Assembly (NCBI RefSeq): GCF_901538265.1
Contig: NZ_LR593886.1
Span: 3,989,738 to 4,053,737 of the forward strand
Source of the DNA: Gemmata massiliana
Lineage (GTDB): Bacteria > Planctomycetota > Planctomycetia > Gemmatales > Gemmataceae
DNA length: 64,000 nt
Direction: 5' to 3'
In this document: one piece after another, positions 23,834 through 40,195 of the stretch
Layout: each line of letters opens with the position of its first letter
Position numbering within the stretch: position 1 is the stretch's first letter
Program-made: the position numbers and the translations under genes
Notes under the pieces: model-generated
What the model saw: the letters and a program-made list of their open reading frames with translations, nothing else
Told to the model about the DNA's origin: nothing
Database searches by the model: none

Positions 23834-26800
23834 GTGCAATTTGCAATGTCAATATGTTCAGATAAATTCCTAAATTTTCTCCTTTCAATACCTATGATCG
23901 ACACTTATGATCCATATCCCCTAAACGAAACATTCGGCACGGTCGCCACGACTCTAAATGAGCCGCCCACCGTGCCACGCACACCAAAACACGTCACGCG
24001 TACTACGTCCCGGACCGTTTCAACAACAGGCGATCTGTACTCGCCTTTGCACAACAGTGGAGCGTTCTCCGGGCACTGGCTCGAGAACCGATTAGAACTG
24101 GAACCCGAGTGGCGGGAGTCCGAAACCGATGTCGTCGCCGCTTTCGGTGCGATCGAACAATTGTGGGAACGGCAGCGCGATCTCGTGGCGAAGTACGGTA
24201 ACGAGCAGAGCCTCGAGCACGCGTTCATCCAACCCGTCATGGCCGCCCTGGGTTGGAAGCTCGTCTACCAGACCCACCTCCAACAGCGGGAACCGGATTA
24301 CGCACTGCTTCTCAACGACCTCCATCACCGCAATGCGGTCCACGCCGGTCACATGACCGACGAGTTCTGGCGGTCGGCCGCGCTCGTTGCCGATGCCAAA
24401 AGGTGGGACCTTTCCCTGGACAAGAAGTTCGGGAGCGGGGCGAAGCGGGAATACCCGCCTGAACAAATCGAGTGGTACTTGGACCGCAGTCGGAAACCGT
24501 TTGGGATCCTCACGAACGGGCGGTTGTGGCGTCTGATCCCGCGCGAGCTCGGTTCGCACCAGCGCCGCTTCCAGACCTACTACCAAGTGGACCTCGTAGC
24601 GATTCTCGAAGGATACGCCCAAGGAATGAAACTCGAGGCGCTCGATGATTTTCGACGCTTCTTCTTGCTGTTTGGCCCGGTCGGGTTCGCGGAACGGGAG
24701 GGCCGCAAGCCATTGATCCAAAGAGCAGTCGAGGGCAGTTCCGAGTACCGGATCGGGGTCAGCGAAGGGCTAAAGGACCGGGCATTCGAGGCCCTGCGCC
24801 TCTGCATCGAAGGATTCCTCGCGTGGAAGGGTAACGAACTAGATAGAGCGAAGAACGCCCGAGAATCTGATTTCGAGATCAGCGAGTCCAAACTCTGGGA
24901 TGACGTACACGACCTTTTCGACTTGATCGACTCGGGCGGCCCGCGCTATGGCGTTGCGGCTTATAACGGTGGGCTGTTTGATCCGACCGTGCATCAGTTC
25001 CTAGACGAGAAGAAGTTATCCGATTGGCACTTGGCCCGGGTCGTCGACTGTCTAGGCCGGGCAGTCGACCCGGAGCACGTCGAGCGCGGAGTGTTCCGGG
25101 TCGATTATCGCGACCTGGCCCTCCAGCACTTGGGAGGCATTTACGAAGGATTGCTTGAATTGCACCCCGCGGTCGCGACTGAGAAGATGGTCGTCTGCAG
25201 CCGGCGTAACAAGGGCGTACTCGAGGAGCAGTGCGTGCCCGCTGGAGCGCCGGTACCTGCGGGTTTTACGAGATCGAGGACCGAATACGAACCACGCTCG
25301 ATTTACCTGATCAAAGACAAGGGCGAGCGTCGCGCGTTCGGGAGTTACTACACCCCGGATCACATCGTCGATCATATCGTGCGCCAGACCATCGCACCGC
25401 TTTGTGAGGGCATTACCGAGAAGATCAGGCGGGAAATCGAAGCCGAGGAGAAGGGCGCGGCCAAGCCGGAGAAATTGAGAACCCTGAACGCGGACTTCCC
25501 GAATCGGGCCCTCGCGCTACGAATCGTTGACCCCGCAATGGGCTCGGGCCACTTTTTACTTTCCGCGTGCCAACACCTCGCTGAGCAGATCGCGACCAAC
25601 CCGTTTACGCCGGCCGATCCAGAAGGCATAAGTGGCAACGACTCGCTGTCGTATTGGAAGCGCCAGGTCGTAGAGCACTGTATTTTCGGTGTGGACACGA
25701 ATCCGTTGGCTGTTGATTTGGCAAAATTGGCGCTTTGGCTCGAAACTGTCGTGCGCGATCGGCCGCTCAGTTTCCTGGATCACCACCTCAAATGTGGCGA
25801 CAGTCTCTTGGGAGCGCGCCTGCACCGTCTGAGCGCACTGCACGATATTGAGGGGTTGGTCGCGATCCCTTTTGAGTCGAAATTTGAACGGAAACTCCCA
25901 GGCCTTCTGGAGCCACTCACCGAGATCCGTCGTTTACCTTCTGACTCAGTGAAACAGGTAAAGCGGAAACTCGCCCTCTTGGGGGCTTACCGGGATGTGG
26001 TCGAACCGTTCTGGGACTTGGCGCAACTATGGTGCGCCGACGCATCGGGCGATCATGTAGACTCGGATCATTATCTTGACGTGATTAAGAATCTGGACAA
26101 ACCGTCGAAATTGAAGGGACTCGCCACACGGGACTGGTACTCGCGACCCGTAAGTTTCGCTACCTCCTTGAATTGTTTTCACTGGGATCTGGCGTTTCCC
26201 GAGGTCTTTTGCAAAACGAGTAACTCACGCTCCGACGTCGGTTTTGATGCCGTCATTGGTAACCCGCCCTATGAGGTGCTCTCGGAGAAAGAGTCCGGGA
26301 TGGACACCGGACATCTCAAGACGTTTGTCGAGAATGAACCGACCTACACGCCCGCCCGCCGCGGCAAACAAAACCTCTACAAATTGTTCATCTGTCGGAG
26401 CCTCGACCTCCTACGCGATAAGGGCCGGTTCGGGTTCATAGTGCCGATGGCGGTACTCGGGGACGATCAAGCTGCGGATATACGACGCTATTTGATCCAG
26501 CGCGGGCAGTTCACGGCCGTCGATGCCTTCCCACAAAAGGACAACCCCAAGAAGCGAGTGTTTGTTGATGCCAAACTTTCGACGGGTGTGTTCAGCTATG
26601 TAAAGGTCGCTCAGAAAGTCAGCTACGACATGTTTCCGTCCCGGCTCTGGAGTGCCAACGTTCTGACGGAAAAACCTCTTGGCGAGCTGACCCTGTCTAC
26701 TGCTGATTTATTGCTCTACGATCCGGCCAACTGCACGATCGTCAGCTGCGCACAAGCGGACTGGGATTTGGCCGTACGGATTATGAAATCGGGTCGAATG

Positions 26801-27616
26801 ACTCGATTACGGGAGTTGACCGAGTTCTTTCAGGGAGAGGTGAACGAAACGAATGAGCGCGCTAACGGAACTTTAACGCCGGCGGGCAACGGTAAACTCG
26901 TCACGCGCGGCGCGAGTATTTGCCTTTATGTCCCGCGCCTCGCATCTCAAGGAGAGGATTTGTACCTCGACACGGAAAAGTTCACTGCAGGCAAAGGGAA
27001 AGAAACAAAAGCGTTTCATCACAAATACCGACGGATCGGGTGGCAAGAAAGCAGCCCTCAGAACAATTTCCGGCGCGTTATTGCTGCACTGATACCAGTC
27101 GGGGAATTCTGCAACCACAAGGTCAATTATTGCTCTGAACATACTTCAAAATTGCCGCTAGAGTTCGTGTTAGCACTACTCAACAGTACATTATCAGATT
27201 GGTATTTTCGTTTAGGCAGCACTAACGCTTCCGTCAGCCACTACCAAGTCTCCAACCTACCGTGCCCGATCTTTCGGGGCGAATCCACAGCTCGCGAGAG
27301 TGAGATCGGGCAACAGGTACTTCGCCATCTGACTGTTGGCCGATGCCCGCATGCACTGGCGCTACTCTCGCCATTACTTGAGACAGCGCCCTTCAGCCCC
27401 ATACTGCAAGATGCAGTGGTAGTCGCGGCACGCAGGATAATCGAATTGGAGAGCAAACGGGGAGAGATCAGCCGGACCGATCGCTCAGAACTCGGTAGCG
27501 ACGCCCAGCACTTTCAGGACTTTATCGACGCGCTGTTGTTCGGGATGGCTGGACTCACCGCGGAAGAGGTGGTTGGCCTCAAGGATCGATACGCGGAGTT
27601 GAAACTCGTGAAATGA
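23834..27616 (+). CDS. Type IIG restriction-modification enzyme (Eco57I-type N6-adenine methylase with nuclease)
   Basis: A ~1260-residue single-chain enzyme. The N-terminal nuclease has EPDYALLLND (~153) and LVADAKRWD (~184), a PD...D-x-K arrangement. The methylase has motif I DPAMGSGHF (~565) and motif IV VIGNPPYE (~807), typical of N6-adenine methylases. The C-terminus has LNSTLSDWYFRLGSTN and VSNLPCPIF, the TaqI-like target-recognition domain. It would methylate and cut at one DNA sequence. ATG 23834 or 23894 may be the start; neither has a clear ribosome site. The first ~100 bases are AT-rich, a sign of transfer. The reading frame is unbroken, so it is probably active. Confidence 0.85.
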   Translation: MQFAMSICSDKFLNFLLSIPMIDTYDPYPLNETFGTVATTLNEPPTVPRTPKHVTRTTSRTVSTTGDLYSPLHNSGAFSGHWLENRLELEPEWRESETDVVAAFGAIEQLWERQRDLVAKYGNEQSLEHAFIQPVMAALGWKLVYQTHLQQREPDYALLLNDLHHRNAVHAGHMTDEFWRSAALVADAKRWDLSLDKKFGSGAKREYPPEQIEWYLDRSRKPFGILTNGRLWRLIPRELGSHQRRFQTYYQVDLVAILEGYAQGMKLEALDDFRRFFLLFGPVGFAEREGRKPLIQRAVEGSSEYRIGVSEGLKDRAFEALRLCIEGFLAWKGNELDRAKNARESDFEISESKLWDDVHDLFDLIDSGGPRYGVAAYNGGLFDPTVHQFLDEKKLSDWHLARVVDCLGRAVDPEHVERGVFRVDYRDLALQHLGGIYEGLLELHPAVATEKMVVCSRRNKGVLEEQCVPAGAPVPAGFTRSRTEYEPRSIYLIKDKGERRAFGSYYTPDHIVDHIVRQTIAPLCEGITEKIRREIEAEEKGAAKPEKLRTLNADFPNRALALRIVDPAMGSGHFLLSACQHLAEQIATNPFTPADPEGISGNDSLSYWKRQVVEHCIFGVDTNPLAVDLAKLALWLETVVRDRPLSFLDHHLKCGDSLLGARLHRLSALHDIEGLVAIPFESKFERKLPGLLEPLTEIRRLPSDSVKQVKRKLALLGAYRDVVEPFWDLAQLWCADASGDHVDSDHYLDVIKNLDKPSKLKGLATRDWYSRPVSFATSLNCFHWDLAFPEVFCKTSNSRSDVGFDAVIGNPPYEVLSEKESGMDTGHLKTFVENEPTYTPARRGKQNLYKLFICRSLDLLRDKGRFGFIVPMAVLGDDQAADIRRYLIQRGQFTAVDAFPQKDNPKKRVFVDAKLSTGVFSYVKVAQKVSYDMFPSRLWSANVLTEKPLGELTLSTADLLLYDPANCTIVSCAQADWDLAVRIMKSGRMTRLRELTEFFQGEVNETNERANGTLTPAGNGKLVTRGASICLYVPRLASQGEDLYLDTEKFTAGKGKETKAFHHKYRRIGWQESSPQNNFRRVIAALIPVGEFCNHKVNYCSEHTSKLPLEFVLALLNSTLSDWYFRLGSTNASVSHYQVSNLPCPIFRGESTARESEIGQQVLRHLTVGRCPHALALLSPLLETAPFSPILQDAVVVAARRIIELESKRGEISRTDRSELGSDAQHFQDFIDALLFGMAGLTAEEVVGLKDRYAELKLVK

Positions 27617-31576: not shown

Positions 31577-32824
31577 ATGAGTTTCATCGTAACTCGCGAA
31601 AAAAGAAGTCACAAGGCCGACAGTATTCGATCCGCGGCCGCGGATCTGCGCGCGGCCGGCTACTCGTTGTGTCGAATCAATCCCAACGAGAAGCGACCGA
31701 CCTATGAGGAGTGGCCCACTCGCTCACTCGAACCCAAGGAGTTCGGACCGGACGATCTGTTGGGCATCATCTGCGGCCCCCTCTCGGACGCCGGGCGACC
31801 GGGGCACGCGCTGGTCGTCGTCGACTTGGACCAACCGGACGCGATGAACCTTGCGACCGAATTTCTGCCCCCGACCGAGCGGATCGTCGGGCGGCGGTCC
31901 AAACCCCGGGCGCACTGGTACTACTTGGTACCGCTCACATCGATACCGGAATGGGCCAAGAGTCCCGCCGAACAGGGTGCCACGGCGGCAAAAGATCGGA
32001 CCGGGCACCCGGGACCGTTCAAGAAACAGTTCCGCCACCGGGAAACGAACGTGGGCGTGATCGATTTCGTCGGCACCGGGGGGCAGGTGGTGGCCCCGCA
32101 CTCACTGCACCCGTCCGGCGAGATCCGTGAATGGAGTGATGAGCCCCCGGGCGAACCGGCCGTCGTCGAGTTTCCGGCTCTCTGGGCGGCAGTGTGTAAA
32201 CTGGCTGCTGCGTGCGGCTGCGAGATTCCCAAGATCGCTCACGCTTCCGTACTCCCACCAACTCCGCGCCCGGAATCTGTTGAGCAGGCGATCGCTTATT
32301 TGGGAAATATGTCCCCCGCTGTTTCTGGGAGCGGGGGGCACGGACAATTGTTCGCCGCCGCGCGGGCGGTTGTGTGGGGCTTTGAGCTGGGGCCGGAGGT
32401 CGGGTTCGATGTTCTTCGAACCCACTACAACCCACGTTGCTCACCACCCTGGTCCGATAGCGAACTGCGCCACAAGTGCGAAGAGGCCAACCGGATCTCA
32501 TTCGATCGGCCGCGTGGGGACTTGAACGACTCAGGGGAACCGTCCGCATCGAACTCCGATGCCGGCGCGCCCGAGGTGTGTCTCGCGATCAAACCAGACG
32601 GCAAGCGGATGCACAAAGTGACGGTGACGGCAAACGGGGTACCCGTCACCGTGGATACGGTCAATCTCGGCACCGCGACCGGGCGCAAGCGGGTGCTGGA
32701 TGCCGTGGTCGAAAAGATCCCTGGGGCCAATCGGAAGGATCTCGAGGCCGAACTGGTTCGGGCGGCGACCGGAACCGATCCCGGGGCCCCGCCGCGCCCG
32801 TCGAGCACCCGGAAGTGGACGTGA
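31577..32824 (+). CDS. Bifunctional primase-polymerase (Prim-Pol)
   Basis: A 415-residue protein. The N-terminal domain (AADLRAAGYSLCRINPNEKR; VVVDLDQPDAMN with the D-x-D; RSKPRAHWYY; FVGTGGQVVAPHSLHPSGE) matches the prim-pol domain of replication proteins from plasmids, phages and satellites. The C-terminal region (SGSGGHGQLFAAARAVV... CSPPWSDSELRHKCEEAN) matches a PriCT-type linker that precedes helicases. It would synthesise primers for replication of the element. A broken helicase gene follows, overlapping by the sequence GTGA at 32821-32824. Confidence 0.8.
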   Translation: MSFIVTREKRSHKADSIRSAAADLRAAGYSLCRINPNEKRPTYEEWPTRSLEPKEFGPDDLLGIICGPLSDAGRPGHALVVVDLDQPDAMNLATEFLPPTERIVGRRSKPRAHWYYLVPLTSIPEWAKSPAEQGATAAKDRTGHPGPFKKQFRHRETNVGVIDFVGTGGQVVAPHSLHPSGEIREWSDEPPGEPAVVEFPALWAAVCKLAAACGCEIPKIAHASVLPPTPRPESVEQAIAYLGNMSPAVSGSGGHGQLFAAARAVVWGFELGPEVGFDVLRTHYNPRCSPPWSDSELRHKCEEANRISFDRPRGDLNDSGEPSASNSDAGAPEVCLAIKPDGKRMHKVTVTANGVPVTVDTVNLGTATGRKRVLDAVVEKIPGANRKDLEAELVRAATGTDPGAPPRPSSTRKWT

Positions 32825-33360
32825 GCCGCGTGGTGCGCCCCGAACTGTTCCACACTCCTGACGCGTCCGCGCTCACGGTCGCGGTGTTGAGCGCGCCCGG
32901 GGGGGGAAACCGATCCCCCGATGGCGCACGTACCTCCGGTGGTCCGACGGGCGCCGCGAACATCGCAACGCGCTCGAATGCGTGCCCCTTCCGGACGGCG
33001 CGACACTGTACGTGTCCCCCGACCCGGGAGAGCCAACCGGATCAGACCCGCCCGCATGGTCGACCCGGTCCCGCACGGCCTGATGCACCGGCGCCCCGGC
33101 CCCCGAACCCGGGCCGTGTTCGAGCGGGTCCGGGATCAGTTCGACCGGTACCTGGACTTTCCCCCGTCGGTCGCGGAAGGAGCACGAGCAACGGTCGCGT
33201 TGTGGACGCTGCTCAGTTACGCGTATCCGGTCTGGAACGCGGTCCCGTACTTGTTCATCGGGGCCCGATGGCGTCCGGCAAGGGCCGGGTTCTGGACGTC
33301 CTACAGCGCCTCGTGTTCCGGCCCCTGTCGTCCGCGAACATGACGGGCCCGGTATCGTTT
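32821..33360 (+). pseudogene. Replicative-helicase-like protein, frameshifted and truncated
   Basis: GTG 32821 starts VSRVVRPELFHTPDASALTV in frame 1. From ~32905, in another frame, comes RWRTYLRWSDGRREHRNALE; then FERVRDQFDRYLDFPPSVAE and WNAVPYLFIG in a third. The P-loop-like GPMASGKGRVLDVLQRLV is back in the first. At least three frame changes are needed, two at G-runs (32898-32908 and 33260-33266). The protein stops after LSSANMTGP, where it runs into the 3' end of the inverted Dnd methyltransferase gene. It is the expected helicase partner of the prim-pol. Confidence 0.7.
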
Positions 33361-34814
33361 CACTCTCTTCAGCTCGCACCAGCCGATGCTTTTTAAGGGC
33401 GAGCTTTCTGTCTGCGAGCCTTTTTGCCCACGCATCCCGTGTCCCAATCCCGCGTGGGTCGTCCAGCAGCCCGTTCTTTTCTTCTTTCTCCGTCCGCCGT
33501 GCGAACTTCTCACGCAGTTCGTGTCCCGCGTGCAGGAAGGGTTCCTTGCGGTGTAGGATCGGCGGGTTGGCGCTGTTCGCGTAGTCGAAGCAGTCGCTCT
33601 GCCTGTTTCGCAGGTTCAGCTTCACGCAGCGGTACAGCGCTGGATGCGGGTCGTCTTCGAAGTCGGGGTAGATGAGGTACGAGATTTTGCCGGTGTGCCG
33701 GTGGATCTTGATGATGTTCGCACCTTCGACTTCACCCAAATACGAGCGGCCACACCCCTCGTAAATCCGCAACACAGGTTCGAGGTGATCGAGCGATTCC
33801 CAGTGGACATACAGATCATCGGGGAGCAGTTTTCCGATCTTCGAACGCTTGCACGCCTCGTCGATAGCATTCGCATCGCCGGCACGGAACAGGATCGCGT
33901 CCGCTTCGGCGCAGGCCTTCGTATAGGTACCGAAAAATGCCTTCGTGTCGCGCTGGAGCGATAAGGGGAGCTGTGACAGGATCGGGCGCTTGCCGAACCG
34001 TGAGAGGGCGAGGTAGACCAACACATCCTCGCGTCGGCGCTGGGCTATCGCCTCCCATCCCTCTTCGCCGGTGATCCGCAGAGTCGCCTTGTATGCGCGC
34101 TTCAGGGAGCCGAATTTCTCGATGGTAGCTGCGGCATCGGGGAACTCGCTCGGGTCAGGAATGCGGCCGAGAGCGGCGATGACCTCCGTCACCGGCTCGA
34201 GGGCCAGCCGCATTTCTTCCAGCCGTAGCTCGGTGATGCGTCGCCGCGGCACGATTTCGCGCCGACGGAACCGGTTGGCGAGAAGCTGTTGCCGACGAGT
34301 CTCGTCCATAAACAGGTAATAGGTGCCGATCCCTGCCGGAATGGGTTCGACTTGGAGCACGCTTTCGAGGTAGGCCTTTAGTTCACTCTGCTCGAAGAAC
34401 CGCTGGAACGTGCCCACGGAGGTGAGCACGCCGTCCCCGAACTCAACCGACTCTTTGCCTCTCCCGCCGACCAGTACCTGCGCGGACACCGCCAGAACCG
34501 TGCAGCACAACGCCCATGCGTTTCTGGTCGTCTCCGCGCGCTCTTCGACATCCTCAATGACGTTAATCACGTAACCGAGGTTAACGACCATCGGCTTCCT
34601 GCCGCACACCATCCGGATGGTGTGCGGGGGCCCATCCGTTACAGACGAACCATCCAGCAGTCAGCAGTTCCAGATCTTCGCCGCGCCCGCACCCGTAATC
34701 GAAGAACGACGTACCTTCTGCGAGCAACCCGTCCCGCATCAGGCACTTCACCGGGCGGGAATAATCGCCGCGTCGAATCGCCGTTTTGTGGCGGTGGATG
34801 ACCGTGGTTTCCAT
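33360..34814 (-). pseudogene. Dnd phosphorothioation-associated putative methyltransferase, frameshifted
   Basis: The N-terminus (METTVIHRHKTAIRRGDYSR, FFDYGCGRGEDLELL) and the remainder (NLGYVINVIEDVEERAETTR; AVSAQVLVGGRGKESVEFGD; KAFFGTYTKACAEADAILF; DLYVHWESLDHLEPVLRIYEG; NPPILHRKEPFL) match the TIGR04096 family found beside dnd genes. One extra base near 34588 (GATGGTC where GATGTC is expected) breaks the frame 15 bases from a 26-base palindrome. The C-terminus is cut off by the helicase fragment. It is divergent from dndC. Confidence 0.8.
34602..34627. repeat. Perfect 26-base palindrome inside the Dnd methyltransferase
   Basis: Arms CCGCACACCATCC and GGATGGTGTGCGG meet without a spacer. 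The half-site ACCATCCGGA is shared with the palindrome at 7025-7053. The methyltransferase frame breaks about 15 bases away. Confidence 0.85.
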
Positions 34815-35133
34815 CGTGTCCCCAACCCTCGATTGAGGGCGTTCACGCAGAAGACTGGGCGAGCACCAGGCGCCACGCATCGGCGAGTTGTCGAGGGGGC
34901 CGCGCAGTTCAGCGCCGCGTTAAAGTGCTACTTTACCAATAACAAATTCTGCTGCCCACGTTGCCCATAATCTTCGTTTTCGCGCGTCGCTGCGGGAAAC
35001 AGGGTAAAGCAGGAAGACTCGGACGCGATGCGGCCGGTCGTTCGCGACGGTTGGGATGGGGGAACGCCCGCTTCGCTAGCCGATCTAATCGGAAAACTCG
35101 GAACGTTTGACCTCGGACGTGAGTAGGGTCGGC
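34815..35133. promoter_or_regulatory. Divergent control region between methyltransferase and dndC
   Basis: 319 bases between divergent starts. TAAAGTGCTACTTTA (34921-34935) is a 6-base-arm palindrome in a locally AT-rich patch and could be an operator. Dnd operons are often autoregulated, but no regulator gene (dndB) is present here. Confidence 0.4.
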
Positions 35134-36512
35134 ATGGTTGAGCAGCATTCGATCACTGAAGGAACCCTCGACCGGCTGCGCGCCGCCCAGGCCGACATCC
35201 GTGAAGAGTATCTCGCAGACAACACAGACCCGTGGATCATCGGCTTTTCCGGCAGTAAGGACCGCACACTCGTTACCCAGCTCGTCTTCGAGATGTTGCT
35301 CGACATCGCCCCGAGCGACCGCAAGCGCCCCATTCACGTACTCTGCAACGATACGCTCGTCGAGTCTCCGGTGCTGATGGCTTACGTCGACCGCATGCTC
35401 GACCGCCTCCAAACAGCCGCCGACAACCTTCACCTGCCGATCAAGGGTCGTGAAGACGGCCCCCGAACCCGACCAGACCTTTGGGTCACCTCATTGGCCG
35501 GGGCTATCCGGCACCGACCCGGATGTTCCGGTGGTGTACCGATCGGATGAAAATCGCCCCGACCTTCAAATTACATCAAAACCCAGATCAGCGAGAACGG
35601 TGAAGTTGTTCTGCTTCTAGGGGTGCGTCGTGCCGAATCGGCCAACCGCGCGATGACGATTAGCCGCCACCGCAACGTAGCTATTGGCACTCGGCTTAAT
35701 CCCCACGATGATATGAAGGGCTGCATGGTCTTTCGGCCCATCATGGAGATGACCACCGATGACGTGTGGCAGCTTCTGCTCCAGCGCACACCGCCGTGGG
35801 GCGGAAGCCATCGTGAGCTGGTCACACTATACCGGAACGCCCGAGGCGGCGAATGCCCTCTTGTGATCGACAAGTCTGCCGCCCCGTCCTGCGGGACTTC
35901 GTCCTCGCGGTTCGGTTGCTGGACATGCACCGTGATCGAAAAAGACCGTAGCATGGAGGCGATGATCGACGCAGGGAACGAGCATCTCGAACCCCTGATG
36001 GAGTTCCGGGACTGGCTGGCGGTTTTCAGGAATGAGCGATCAAAGCGTATGGTCGAACGGCGAGACGGTCGTATTGCGCTAATGGGCGATGGTGTCACGA
36101 CGGTGGCCGGTCCTTTTACTGTGGAAGCCCGGCAGGAAATTCTCGATAAACTGCTGGAAACGCAGGCGTCGGTTCAGATGCCGCTGATCAGTAACGACGA
36201 GATTTCTCGGATCAAAGCGATTTGGGCGGACGATGCCGTTGCTGAGGCAAAGCGGCACCTGAAGCAACGTGAACAACTGCGAGCGAGGGAGCAGGCACGA
36301 ACGGGATACCGCTGTTCGAGCAGGGCAACGCCCGGGACGCGCTGAAGAAGAAATGCCACGAGGCCAAGATTCCCATCAAACTGCTCGAAGACCTCGTTGA
36401 AGCCGAAATCGAGCAGATCGGCAAACTGAGGAAGCGAGGCCTGCGGGGGCGGTTCGACCAACTGCTCGATCCGAACGCCGGTGCGGAAGGCTCGGAAGGA
36501 CAAGGGGAGTGA
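35134..36512 (+). pseudogene. dndC: DndC-like DNA sulfur-modification protein, frameshifted
   Basis: Fragments in several frames give a near-complete DndC: TEGTLDRLRAAQADIREEYL, FSGSKDRTLVTQLVFEML, RGYPAPTRMFRWCTDRMK, GEVVLLLGVRRAESANRA, ECPLVIDKSAAPSCG, SRFGCWTCTVIEKDRSMEA and ALKKKCHEAKIPIKLLEDLV. The PP-loop normally reads SGGKDST; here it is SGSKDRT. At least four frame changes occur (about 35450-35490, 35500-35520, 35565 and 36300). DndC is a PAPS-reductase-like enzyme that activates DNA for sulfur incorporation. With an altered ATP loop and broken frames, it is surely inactive. Confidence 0.85.
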
Positions 36513-36513
36513 C

Positions 36514-37060
36514 ATGTTTCTTCGCTCAATCCAGCTCCGCGATTGGAAGACCTACGCCAACGGCCAGTTCGACTTCCCTGTACCGACCGCAAAGAAGAAC
36601 GTCATCCTAATCGGTGCAAAGAACGGGTACGGCAAGACAAGTCTGCTGGAAGCGATCATCCTCGGCCTTTACGGTCGCGACGGGATGCATGCCCTCGCGC
36701 GCCGTCTCATCGGGATCGGACGAAGACAAGTCCTACGACGAGTTCATGGAGCGGGCGCTCCACGGTCAGGCGCTATCGCAGGGACGTACCTCGATCGCCA
36801 TCACCATCGTGCTCGAAGACGCGATCGAGCGGCTCAAGATCGTCCGCCGTTGGCACTTCACCGGGAGCGGAAAACACCGTCGGACGGACGAGGAAGTCAA
36901 CCTCTTCACGGGCAAGGACGAGGAGCCGGTCAAAGTGCCGGGGCTTCGTCCCTCACGGGAAGAGCGCGACGACTACCGCAGCGTCATCGCCCGGCAGTTC
37001 ATCCCGTTCCACCTGACCGAATTCTTCCTGGTCGATGGCGAGCGAGTTCAGCAGTTCGCT
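36514..37060 (+). pseudogene. dndD: DndD-like SMC/ATPase, frameshifted and truncated
   Basis: The N-terminus MFLRSIQLRDWKTYANGQFD with Walker A GAKNGYGKTSLLEA identifies a DndD/RecN-SMC-type ATPase. The frame changes near 36715 and continues with DEDKSYDEFMERALHGQ, RQFIPFHLTEFFLVDGERVQ. It ends at QQFA (~37060), where the sequence joins an inverted glycoside-hydrolase fragment. Only ~185 of the usual ~650+ residues remain. GGGGAG precedes the ATG, 2 bases after the dndC stop. Confidence 0.85.
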
Positions 37061-37835
37061 TCGGGCGCCGCGTCGTTCGAGTTGATGAGGCCGGGAATGT
37101 ACCCTTCCGGGCCAGTTCCTCGGCCCTCGGGCGCGGGACCAGCGCGGTGCCCCCCGGCCCCTCCGCGGGCGGGAGCAAGGACCAGTCGTCCTGCGGCACC
37201 TCGACCATTGTGTACGTGCCGGGGTAGTCCCTGTACCCGCGCAGTGCTAGGTGGAAGTCCGGCCCCAACCCGGTGTGCAGCGGAACGAGGTCGCCGGCGA
37301 TCCCGGCTTTGTGCTGCGGCCACGGCGACCAGCTTCGCGTACTCCTCCGCGGTGCCGAGTGCCGGGTCCAGGTCGAGTGAGACGTGGTCGAACCACCTGT
37401 CCGTGGTCGGAGTGTACTCGGTCCCCTGGACGCCCCTGGCCCGCTCGACCGGACCGGTGTGGAGCAGGTCGACGCCGAGATCCCGGAGAGCGCCCCACAG
37501 TTCGGGCGCGCCCCAGGTCGCGACGACCGACTTCCCCGGCGCGGTCACCACCGAACCGGGTAATCGAGCAACCAAACGGAGGCGTATCGGACCGCCCCGA
37601 CCGCGCGAGGCGTACCGTATGTGTGCCCCTACTGCACGGGCCGACCGGACACGGCGGTCGATGCGTCCCGAGCCTGAGCGAGCATCGACCGCTTTTCGAG
37701 CCAGCGGATCTCGGCGGAAACCGCGGCGGGTTTCGGGGGCGCGTTCTCGACCGGCGGCGCGAGCAAAAGGACCGCGAGTAGCAATGCGGTCGCGGGCAGG
37801 AGGGCGACCGCGGCACCGGGTCGGTAACGAGTCAT
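37060..37835 (-). pseudogene. GH13 (trehalose-synthase/amylase-like) N-terminal fragment
   Basis: The minus strand starts MTRYRPGAAVALLPATALLL (signal peptide). After frame changes it gives SVVATWGAPELWGALRDLGV, VDLLHTGPVERARGVQGTEY, FHLALRGYRDYPGTYTMVEV and YIPGLINSNDAAPEA. This is the start of a planctomycete family of secreted alpha-amylase / trehalose-synthase-like proteins. Frames change near 37640, 37315 and 37100. It is cut at ~37060 against dndD. The rest of the gene (probably >700 residues) is not in the window. Confidence 0.6.
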
Positions 37836-38046
37836 GAGGGTTGCTCCGGGCACCGCTGGGATGAAGTGCGTCCCGACCGGCCACTATGGAGCAACCGGCG
37901 CGCCGCGCGTTACGACCGGCTACCACATAGGCGCGTTGAAAGAGTCCTGATAGGTTCTTCACTAAACACCGAGTCGCGGGGTTGACCGGGACCGTATCCG
38001 GTGGAGCTTCCGGTTTGGTTTGCCCCGCGCGCTCGAGTGAGCGAGT

Positions 38047-38304
38047 AGCACTGCCGAACTGGTCGAGGGCGTGAGCCAGAAGGTGCTCACCAAGACGGTG
38101 CGGCAGATGGAGGCCGACGGGCTCGTCACACGCAAGGTCCACCCGGTGATTCCCCCGCACGTCGATTACGCACGCACCCCGCTCGGAAGGGGCCTGGGCG
38201 AGGCGTTCTGCGGTGTGTGGAAATGGGCTGAAAAGAACCACGCGAAGGTCGAAGCCGCACGGAAGGTGTTCAGCAAGAAGCGCCAGGTAAAGGAACGCGC
38301 GTGA
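38047..38304 (+). pseudogene. HxlR-family regulator, N-terminally truncated
   Basis: The frame gives AELVEGVSQKVLTKTVRQME, ADGLVTRKVHPVIPPHVDYA and RTPLGRGLGEAF, the second half of an HxlR winged-helix protein. The first ~45 residues (entry helix) are missing. No start or ribosome site is found before GVSQK. Its TGA overlaps the ATG of the methyltransferase gene that follows, so the regulator probably once led that operon. Confidence 0.65.
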
Positions 38305-38918
38305 TGAGTTGGTCACCGGATCAGTACGGCAAGTTCGAGGACGAGCGGAACCGCCCGATCCGCGACCTGCTCGCCCAAATCCCGAACGGTGTGTCGGGCG
38401 CTGCCGATCTGGGCTGCGGACCGGGCAACTCGACGGAACTGCTGATCCGGCGATTCCCGGACGCCACGGTCGTCGGGGTGGACAGCTCGGAAGACATGAT
38501 CCGGGCGGCAAAGCAACGCCTGCCGAACGTCCGCTTCGAACTCGGAGACCTCGCCGCCTGGCCGGAACAACCTTTCGACCTAGTCTTCGCCAACGCGGCC
38601 ATCCAGTGGGTACCGGACCACACGAAGCTCCTCTCGTTCCTGTTCGGGAAGGTCGCACCGGGTGGACGTCTCGCAGTGCAGATCCCCGACAACCTCGATG
38701 AGCCGGCACACCGCATCATGCGGGACGTCGCAGCGGAAGGCCCGTGGGCGGAAAAGCTGCGGAACGCGGCAAGCGCAAGAGCGGCCCGACACACACCGGA
38801 GTGGTACTACCGCGAACTGCGGACACTCGGCGCGAACGTGAACGTGTGGCGTACGACGTACTACCACCCGCTCAAGGACGCGAGTGCGCTGACGGAGTGG
38901 TTCAAGGGCACCGGCCTT
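38304..38918 (+). pseudogene. tam: trans-aconitate 2-methyltransferase-like gene, 5' part (interrupted by IS256)
   Basis: MSWSPDQYGKFEDERNRPIR and the SAM motif GAADLGCGPGNSTELLIRRF, then LVFANAAIQWVPDHT, match the trans-aconitate 2-methyltransferase (Tam) family. The frame is intact up to TEWFKGTGL at 38918, where a deleted IS256 element begins. The remaining part is at 40033-40195. Tam methylates trans-aconitate to prevent aconitase inhibition. ATG 38304 overlaps the HxlR stop (TGATG). Confidence 0.8.
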
Positions 38919-40032
38919 GGGCTGGTCCTGAATCTTGTGTCAGGGGGATGGGTTGGCTATTACCCAGTCCTCGTACCTGACGGAGATTCCCACAATGGAT
39001 GCGATCCTCAAGAGCCAAGCCGAGCACCTGGCCCGCGAGATGGGGACCCGGGTCACCACTCTGGACGACCTCAACGGTCTGATGCGGGCCATGATGACGA
39101 CCGCGCGGGAGCGCATGCTCAACACCGAGATGGACGTCCACCTCGGACGACGGACCGAGACGACGGTCACCGACAACCCAACGCCCGACGCACCGACAAC
39201 CAACGCGACCGAACGTGTCTCCGCGGCTCCCAAGAGCCGTCGCAACGGGCATTCGCAGAAGACCGTCAGCGGCGATCTGGGCGACCTCCAACTGCGCACC
39301 CCGCGGGACCGCAACGGCACCTTCGAGCCGCAACTGGTCGCCACGGGGCCGCGCCGGCTCGACGGGTTCGATGAGAAGATCCTGGCCCTCTACGCCAAGG
39401 GCCTGACGACCCGCGACATCCAGGACATCGTGAAGGATCTGTACGGCGTGGAGGTGTCACCGGCGCGGGTCTCGGAGATCACCACCGACCTCGATGCCGA
39501 GGTCACCGCGTGGCGCACCCGGCGGCTCGAAGGGGTGTGGCCGATCGTGTACCTGGACGGCATCGTGGTCCACGTGCGGGGCGAGAACGGGCGCGTTTCG
39601 CCGCACACGATGTACGTCGCGATCGGCGTGAACCTCCAGGGCCGCAAGGAGCTCTTGGGCCTGTGGCTGAGCGAGGCCGAGGGCCCCAAGTTCTGGCTGT
39701 CGTGCCTGACGGACCTGAAGAGCCGCGGGGTGAGCGACATGTTCGTGGTGTGCGTCGACGGGCTCTCGGGGCTCCCCGAAGCGATCCGCGCGGCGTTCCC
39801 GCGGACGAAGGTGCAGCTGTGCATCGTGCACCGGGTGCGGGCGGCGCGGAAGTACGTGACCGATTCGGACAGCCGTGAAGTCGCGGCCGACCTGGACCAT
39901 GCCGATCGTGGGGTGGAAGGCGGCGCGGAACCACTTCGCCATCGTGTTCGAGGGCCGCATGCCTACGCGGCCCCCGAACTGACCTGCAACCGATGTGCCC
40001 GACCTACCTGACACAAGAATCTTTACAAGCCC
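38919..40032 (+). mobile_element. IS256-family element, internally deleted, inside tam
   Basis: The ends are imperfect inverted repeats sharing TCTTGTGTCAGG (starts GGGCTGG and GGGCTTG). Both sides carry CCGGCCTT (38911-38918 and 40033-40040), an 8-base target duplication typical of IS256. The element is 1114 bases, shorter than the usual ~1.3-1.5 kb because the central-to-distal transposase region is deleted. Confidence 0.85.
38995..40011 (+). pseudogene. IS256-family transposase, C-terminal part deleted
   Basis: DLNGLMRAMMTTARERMLNT, WPIVYLDGIVVHVRGENGRV (first catalytic Asp) and MFVVCVDGLSGLPEAIRAAF (second Asp) are present. After [15 protein letters not shown] the frame breaks. The true end [20 protein letters not shown]...MPT appears in another frame (to 39982), so a segment including the catalytic Glu and NAIESVN-type region is gone. 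It cannot encode active transposase. Confidence 0.85.
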
Positions 40033-40195
40033 CCGGCCTTCGCCCGTTCCTGCTGCCACTGGATGATTCAGAACGAGCAGGGTTTCTCGCCCGCTACACG
40101 AAGGCTCTCGAAGTGGCGTACCCGGCATTCCCCGACGGAACCGTGCTGTTGCCGTTCCCGAGACTGTTCTTTGTGGCAATGCGGCCGACCGGTTG
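40033..40195 (+). pseudogene. tam: trans-aconitate 2-methyltransferase-like gene, 3' part
   Basis: After the target duplication CCGGCCTT the frame resumes as [39 protein letters not shown] and [10 protein letters not shown], then a stop. Removing the IS and one CCGGCCTT copy restores a continuous protein ([12 protein letters not shown]). Confidence 0.8.

What the first reader, a model, noticed from the sequence alone, without database searches (positions are those of the whole stretch)
33360..37060. Decayed Dnd phosphorothioation locus with divergent methyltransferase
The Dnd-associated methyltransferase family lies divergent from dndC-dndD. All three genes are broken: one-base insertion in the methyltransferase, at least four frame changes in dndC, one frame change and truncation in dndD. 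The dndC ATP loop reads SGSKDRT instead of SGGKDST. dndB and dndE are absent. A phosphorothioation system was apparently acquired and then lost, next to a still-intact type IIG enzyme.
Basis: partly seen in the sequence, partly recalled or inferred. Interest (0 to 1): 0.75.

Follow-up and report, generated by a model that had tools for sequence, protein, structure and literature searches.

The report
Scar of a DNA-sulfur defence operon
The sequence holds the broken remains of genes that probably once put sulfur into this bacterium's DNA as a defence against invaders, and a second broken set lies nearby, so this is a real but fairly ordinary case of a defence system gained and then lost.

Summary
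Family models place the pieces as PT-associated methyltransferase (TIGR04096), DndC and DndD. Frame-aware alignment to intact relatives shows one frameshift in the methyltransferase, three clustered, compensating indels in dndC and one in dndD, which keeps only ~184 of ~692 residues. The DndC ATP loop is SGSKDRT; intact relatives have SGGKDST. (2) The operon is the known dndC - small protein - dndD - dndE::HerA variant; no canonical dndB was found near six relatives' copies, though two carry a DGQHR relative of DndB. (3) The genome has a second, different dndB-dndC remnant ~39 kb away and a third, methyltransferase scar. No complete system was found, but the dndE and SspC genome searches were inconclusive. 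Some relatives carry broken copies. Open rpoB and type IIG frames argue against poor assembly. Real, ordinary, modestly interesting as repeated PT loss.

The parts
33344..34814 (-). Pseudogene of the PT-associated putative methyltransferase (TIGR04096); one frameshift near 34589; its own stop is not recognisable and the frame runs on to 32873
   Evidence: 354/485 identical to L024
34815..35133 (.). Divergent intergenic region between methyltransferase and dndC; starts inferred
35134..36299 (+). dndC pseudogene: three indels (near 35446, 35486, 35565; net zero), in-frame stop at 35548, one extra codon near 35683, altered PP-loop, own stop codon lost
   Evidence: 309/384 identical to L043 DndC
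36300..36512 (+). Remnant of the small gene between dndC and dndD (Sp-DndD type); start codon lost by the same substitution that removes the dndC stop
   Evidence: 50/69 identical to L043; 124.9 bits to a model of four relatives. The window piece itself gives no Pfam or NCBIfam match
36514..37063 (+). dndD remnant: first ~184 of ~692 residues, one frameshift near 36697, broken off at ~37063
37064..38300 (.). Right flank: unrelated to dnd, no second copy in the genome; in 19 genomes of the genus only short matches, longest 212 bases at 74%
31577..32824 (+). Prim-Pol domain protein of a probable integrated element, left flank
   Evidence: PF09250, 43.2 bits
29851..31032 (+). Probable decayed tyrosine-recombinase ORF, judged by eye; no Pfam match

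Best explanation
This is a dead PT locus. Shown: an operon of the type dndC - small protein - dndD lay here beside a divergent PT-associated methyltransferase; the dndE::HerA gene that follows in relatives is missing, as are the last three quarters of dndD (break at ~37063); the methyltransferase, dndC and dndD carry indels, the dndC-stop/small-gene-start overlap is gone, and the DndC ATP loop is changed. From established knowledge of the family: when intact, a cysteine desulfurase would pass sulfur to DndC (PP-loop, iron-sulfur protein), DndD (ABC ATPase) with DndE would scan DNA for target sites, and sulfur would be put into the backbone to mark self DNA; the fused HerA translocase probably coupled this to handling of invading DNA (inference). 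Inferred: no PT modification is made from this locus today. A second, different dndB-dndC remnant ~39 kb away and a short methyltransferase scar elsewhere suggest that this lineage gained and lost PT modules more than once.
For: Family assignments. Relatives of the same operon in planctomycete MAGs and an Archangium MAG and on Burkholderia and Aureimonas plasmids. Frameshifts: 3 in window dndC, 1 in the methyltransferase, 1 in dndD, while 12 of 13 comparisons among copies taken as intact need none (the exception, L066, needs one and was not traced). Unique residues where the other copies agree: dndC 22/284 against 5/267, 8/270, 10/272, 10/272 (the last two are themselves broken copies); methyltransferase 50/358, 22 of them BLOSUM-negative, against 13/321, 19/327, 6/314 with 3 each. 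Second locus with 3 frameshifts in dndB and 4 frameshifts plus 2 stops in dndC. DndD only in the window apart from a 22.4-bit hit; no DndH, with a control that rang. Assembly controls: rpoB open over 1324 aa, type IIG open over 1260 aa.
Against: dndD shows no excess of unique changes (8/133 against 13/138, 6/131, 7/132). The excess in dndC and methyltransferase could partly reflect a longer branch; four-fold sites are near saturation (0.5-0.75). The three dndC indels sum to zero and lie in or beside short homopolymers, where long-read errors occur; the dndD indel lies in a GC repeat. Absence of dndE rests on local tblastn; the genome-wide PF08870 and SspC searches had silent controls. Only two genes (rpoB, type IIG) were used as assembly controls.
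Confidence: 0.9

Rival explanations
1. The frameshifts are sequencing or assembly errors and the genes are intact in the organism.
For: The frame-breaking indels are one or two bases, the three in dndC compensate each other, and four of the five lie in or beside short repeats.
Against: rpoB and the 1260-aa type IIG ORF are open in the same assembly; completeness is 98.86%. Errors of this kind would not explain the dndD break and the missing dndE::HerA, the altered PP-loop, the lost stop/start, or a second locus missing the start of dndB and the end of dndC.
Confidence: 0.05
2. Part of the locus still works, for example the large C-terminal methyltransferase piece translated from its own ATG at 34612, or a truncated DndC or DndD acting as a decoy.
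For: The C-terminal piece stays open and collinear to residue 490 of 493.
Against: It lacks the FFDYGCGRGEDLELL segment, which lies in the separated N-terminal piece; the gene shows the largest excess of unique changes (50/358); DndC has an altered ATP loop and a stop.
Confidence: 0.04
3. The ATPase remnant is PbeC (CxC clade) of a Pbe system rather than DndD.
For: PADLOC scores the two pieces higher as PbeC PDLC02736 (101.4 and 81.7 bits) than as DndD PDLC02668 (47.0 and 29.0 bits).
Against: Four relatives (L043, L044, L046, L027) and L067 have no C-x-C; L044 exceeds the DndD cut-off (291.4 over 245.85). The next gene is a DndE-HerA fusion, whereas Pbe is described with an HKD nuclease-helicase and a separate DndE (PMC10853773 passages).
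Confidence: 0.05

Closest known systems
dndC - small protein - dndD - FtsK/HerA operon on Burkholderia glumae and Aureimonas plasmids
   Same: Same gene order; small gene overlapping the end of dndC
   Different: Annotated as whole genes there; in the window each of the three operon genes present is broken and the FtsK/HerA gene is missing. Aureimonas also has a divergent DGQHR gene
DndE-HerA/FtsK fusion systems beside a DndD-related ABC ATPase (PMC10853773, passages read)
   Same: L043 carries DndE fused to a HerA ATPase directly after dndD; L044 and L046 encode homologues of it
   Different: The words 'pseudogene' and 'planctomycet' do not occur in that paper's held main text
PT-associated methyltransferase TIGR04096 divergent from sspBCD (L024, L025, L026; Trichormus plasmid)
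   Same: Methyltransferases 71-74% identical over the main piece (L024, L025, L026), divergent arrangement
   Different: In the window the divergent partner is dndC; no ssp remnant in the window, L008 or L009
Canonical dndBCDE (G063, L050)
   Same: Best available model for the second remnant, dndB-dndC at L008
   Different: The second remnant is 45% (dndB, 138/308) and 64% (dndC, 240/377) identical, broken, and lacks dndD and dndE

Membership tests
DndC (TIGR03183) | Profile score over curated cut-off | tested here: met
   303.5 bits over 290.4 when read across the lesions; single pieces are below (83.1, 198.1)
DndC (TIGR03183) | PP-loop SGGKDS motif (motif recalled; seen in relatives) | tested here: not met
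   SGSKDRT in the window, SGGKDST in L043 and L044
DndC (TIGR03183) | Open reading frame | tested here: not met
   Three indels and an in-frame stop at 35548
DndD (TIGR03185) | Profile score over curated cut-off | tested here: not met
   43.4 and 27.6 bits against 245.85; only ~184 N-terminal residues remain. Relative L044 scores 291.4
PbeC / CxC-clade ATPase | C-x-C zinc hook in the coiled coil | tested here: inconclusive
   The window remnant lacks the coiled coil; relatives L043, L044, L046, L027 and L067 have no C-x-C
TIGR04096 PT-associated methyltransferase | Profile score over curated cut-off | tested here: met
   446.8 bits over 150 for the main piece
TIGR04096 PT-associated methyltransferase | Single open frame | tested here: not met
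   One frameshift near 34589; L025, L026, L027 copies need none
Sp-DndD (PF20306) | Profile score over gathering cut-off | tested here: not met
   No match for the window piece; relative L044 17.3 bits, below 27.2
Functional Dnd modification system | dndC, dndD and dndE present and intact in the genome | tested here: not met
   Only broken dndC at two loci and a truncated dndD; the dndE genome search is inconclusive, its control was silent
Functional Dnd modification system | Phosphorothioate in genomic DNA | not testable with these tools
   Needs mass spectrometry or iodine cleavage

The most novel reading that the evidence does not exclude
PT defence modules of different lineages repeatedly enter this bacterial family and are repeatedly destroyed: this genome alone carries a dndC-dndD scar, a different dndB-dndC scar and a third methyltransferase scar, and other family members carry broken copies too. 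PT modification would then be actively costly in these cells, and the scars would give a natural series for measuring that cost and its cause.
Probability: 0.3. Interest if true: 0.5.

Novelty: new member of a known kind. Interest (0 to 1): 0.3.

Why it matters
PT systems are patchily distributed, and a 2021 study (PMC8569181, abstract and passages read) argued that their negative effects limit horizontal spread. Scars of two different PT loci in one genome, with broken copies in some relatives, point to loss after gain rather than failure to arrive. They also warn annotation against calling this strain PT-positive: dndC scores above its family cut-off when read across the lesions.

Tried and rejected
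Considered a Pbe system because PADLOC's best hits are PbeC; rejected on the missing C-x-C hook in relatives. Considered a conserved programmed frameshift at the end of dndC, because the relatives with that stretch all change frame there; rejected when L043 and L044 showed an ATG, and L046 a TTG, overlapping the dndC stop (L047 has an ATG just after it), and NCBI annotates a separate small protein on two plasmids. Looked for the missing part of dndD and for dndE in the window, L008 and L009: nothing credible. Looked for another copy or an empty site of the right flank: one copy only, short matches in the genus. No tRNA in the window to mark an island end. SspC in the own genome: none, control silent, inconclusive. 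DndE likewise. Literature: Gemmata with phosphorothioat gave 2 papers with one or two mentions of each term, seen as listing only; dndC, Planctomycetes and phosphorothioate modification together gave none; only the held open-access library was searched.

The identity of the second remnant was also corrected.

Not done: the weak DndC match in G018 (33.6 bits) was not examined; the L066 frameshift was not traced; no tree was built; no structure was predicted.
Full report
What is there. The window is G000:C1:3989738-4053737 of a 10.1-Mb single-contig genome, 98.86% complete. These scores are far beyond chance.

Relatives. A scan of genome contigs with the main dndC piece returned 7 loci, 5 of them 64-84% identical. 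L043, L044 and L046 (an Archangium MAG) carry an open dndC of 388-389 codons, a small gene, an open dndD of 688-693 codons and a gene of 510-518 codons. In L043 that last gene matches Pfam DndE (37.5 bits) at its start and HerA domains after it. The same order, dndC - 'DNA modification system-associated small protein' - dndD - 'DNA translocase FtsK', is annotated on plasmids of Burkholderia glumae and Aureimonas. A DndE-HerA fusion beside a DndD-related ATPase is described in PMC10853773 (passages read). So the operon type is known.

dndB in this operon type. tblastn with two canonical DndB proteins found none in the held DNA of L043, L044, L046, L047, L067 and L068; L044 is cut 386 bases before dndC. 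A DGQHR protein, a DndB relative (TIGR04172, 437.0 bits, just under its cut-off of 450), lies divergent from dndC in Aureimonas, and a relative of it follows the operon in L046.

How the window copy is broken. I aligned relatives' proteins to the window DNA allowing frameshifts. dndC: 309/384 residues identical to L043, three indels near 35446, 35486 and 35565 that sum to zero, one extra codon near 35683, and an in-frame stop at 35548. The ATP loop reads SGSKDRT; L043 and L044 read SGGKDST. dndD: one indel near 36697, 141/182 identical to L043, ending at ~37063 after ~184 of ~692 residues. Methyltransferase: one indel near 34589, 354/485 identical to L024, homology to residue 490 of 493. Nothing credible of DndE::HerA was found in the window, L008 or L009. 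As control, of 18 comparisons, 13 were among copies taken as intact: 12 needed no frameshift and L066 needed one, not traced.

A correction. The last, near 36300, is not a lesion of that kind. In L043 and L044 the small gene's ATG overlaps the dndC stop, in L047 it starts just after, and in L046 a TTG overlaps it. In the window one substitution removes both the dndC stop and the small gene's start. The L044 small protein matches Pfam Sp-DndD weakly (17.3 bits, cut-off 27.2) and the tail of full-length DndC weakly (PRK06850 positions 408-460, E 0.0073; the Burkholderia one TIGR03183 383-444, E 0.0053). It may be a detached DndC tail; this is a lead only.

DndD or PbeC. PADLOC prefers PbeC for both pieces (101.4 and 81.7 bits against 47.0 and 29.0 for DndD). 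PbeC is the CxC-clade ATPase, named for its C-x-C zinc hook (PMC10853773). None of four relatives tested has a C-x-C, nor has the Burkholderia one, and L044 passes the DndD cut-off (291.4 over 245.85). I call it DndD; the window piece itself lacks the coiled coil.

Methyltransferase partner. In L024, L025 and L026 the methyltransferase is divergent from an sspB homologue followed by sspC and sspD homologues (profile scores for L024 SspB 332.4, L024 SspC 1108.7 and L025 SspD 382.5 bits). The Trichormus plasmid has the same layout with a DUF4007 protein. In L027 the methyltransferase follows dndD and a DndE-HerA gene. So it keeps company with more than one PT module, and its pairing with this dndC may be local. 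No ssp remnant lies in the window, L008 or L009.

The rest of the genome. A second remnant lies ~39 kb beyond the first dndC: dndB at L008:12694-13642 (138/308 identical to G063 DndB, first ~105 residues not found, 3 frameshifts, the last near the weakly aligned end) and dndC at L008:13656-14792 (240/377 identical, 4 frameshifts, 2 stops, last ~90 residues not found) with SGGKDST kept; no dndD or dndE follows. Its dndC pieces match the window's at only 33-45%, so it is a different lineage, not a duplicate. A methyltransferase fragment near C1:5632500 aligns 50/93 with 3 frameshifts. DndD is found only in the window apart from a 22.4-bit hit; DndH gives no match, with a control that rang. SspC and DndE searches found nothing but their controls were silent.

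Decay or error. rpoB is one open frame of 1324 aa and the type IIG ORF is 1260 aa. The window dndC has 22 unique residues at 284 positions where the four other copies agree, against 5/267, 8/270, 10/272 and 10/272 for those copies, two of which are themselves broken; the methyltransferase has 50/358 against 13/321, 19/327 and 6/314; dndD does not stand out (8/133 against 13/138, 6/131, 7/132). Four-fold sites are near saturation, so branch length cannot be separated from relaxed selection. The dndC indels lie in or beside short homopolymers, which leaves room for some sequencing error.

How common. TIGR04096 matches in 8 of 95 genomes of the family: 4 with one open copy over the cut-off, the own genome, and 3 with fragments, one of them very weak. 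DndC matches in 10 of 95: 5 with one open copy over the cut-off; the own genome, broken twice; G004 with 2 frameshifts in dndC, a stop in dndD and 1 frameshift in the fusion gene; G075 with 1 frameshift and an end at residue 377 of 388; G011 with only the C-terminal part; G018 not examined (L047 and L045 give the same alignments as the G004 and G075 loci). Many of these genomes are fragmented, so some breaks may be assembly faults. Across 392 genomes of the phylum, 9, own included, match a model of this dndC at E 1e-40 or better.

Setting. To the left lie a DDE transposase, a probable integrase remnant and a Prim-Pol gene, suggesting an integrated element; to the right an unrelated stretch with no second copy, then a SAM-methyltransferase ORF that appears interrupted by a Mutator-type transposase. 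dnd operons on genomic islands are reported (PMC4373003, seen as title and start of abstract).

Verdict. The locus is a real PT scar, correctly seen, with one miscounted frame change and a wider story of repeated loss. Known kind of system, known kind of decay. Interest 0.3.

Noticed in passing
L008:12694-14792 (G000:C1:4062693-4064791): Second dndB-dndC remnant of a different lineage, with seven frameshifts and two stops in the alignment, about 39 kb from the first.
   Followed up: yes
L015:1501-1783 (G000:C1 near 5632500): Third scar: ~95-residue fragment of a PT-associated methyltransferase with three frameshifts.
   Followed up: partly
L043:10674-10887, L044:1550-1765, window 36300-36512: The small protein between dndC and dndD weakly resembles the C-terminal tail of full-length DndC; it may be a detached DndC tail.
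   Followed up: partly
L024:3751-10692, L025:4931-11889, L026:9269-16241: The PT-associated methyltransferase sits divergent from sspBCD homologues in three relatives, pointing to a link with Ssp as well as Dnd systems; its role is unknown.
   Followed up: partly
L046:15128-16114: A DGQHR (DndB-like) protein follows the dndC-small-dndD-dndE::HerA operon in the Archangium MAG.
   Followed up: no
window 38301-40045: Mutator-family transposase (38935-40011) with imperfect terminal repeats (38906-38944 and 40007-40045) appears to interrupt a SAM-methyltransferase ORF.
   Followed up: no
window 23834-27616: Open 1260-aa protein scoring as DISARM DrmMI (254.7 bits) and as type IIG restriction enzyme-methyltransferase (142.5 bits).
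   Followed up: no
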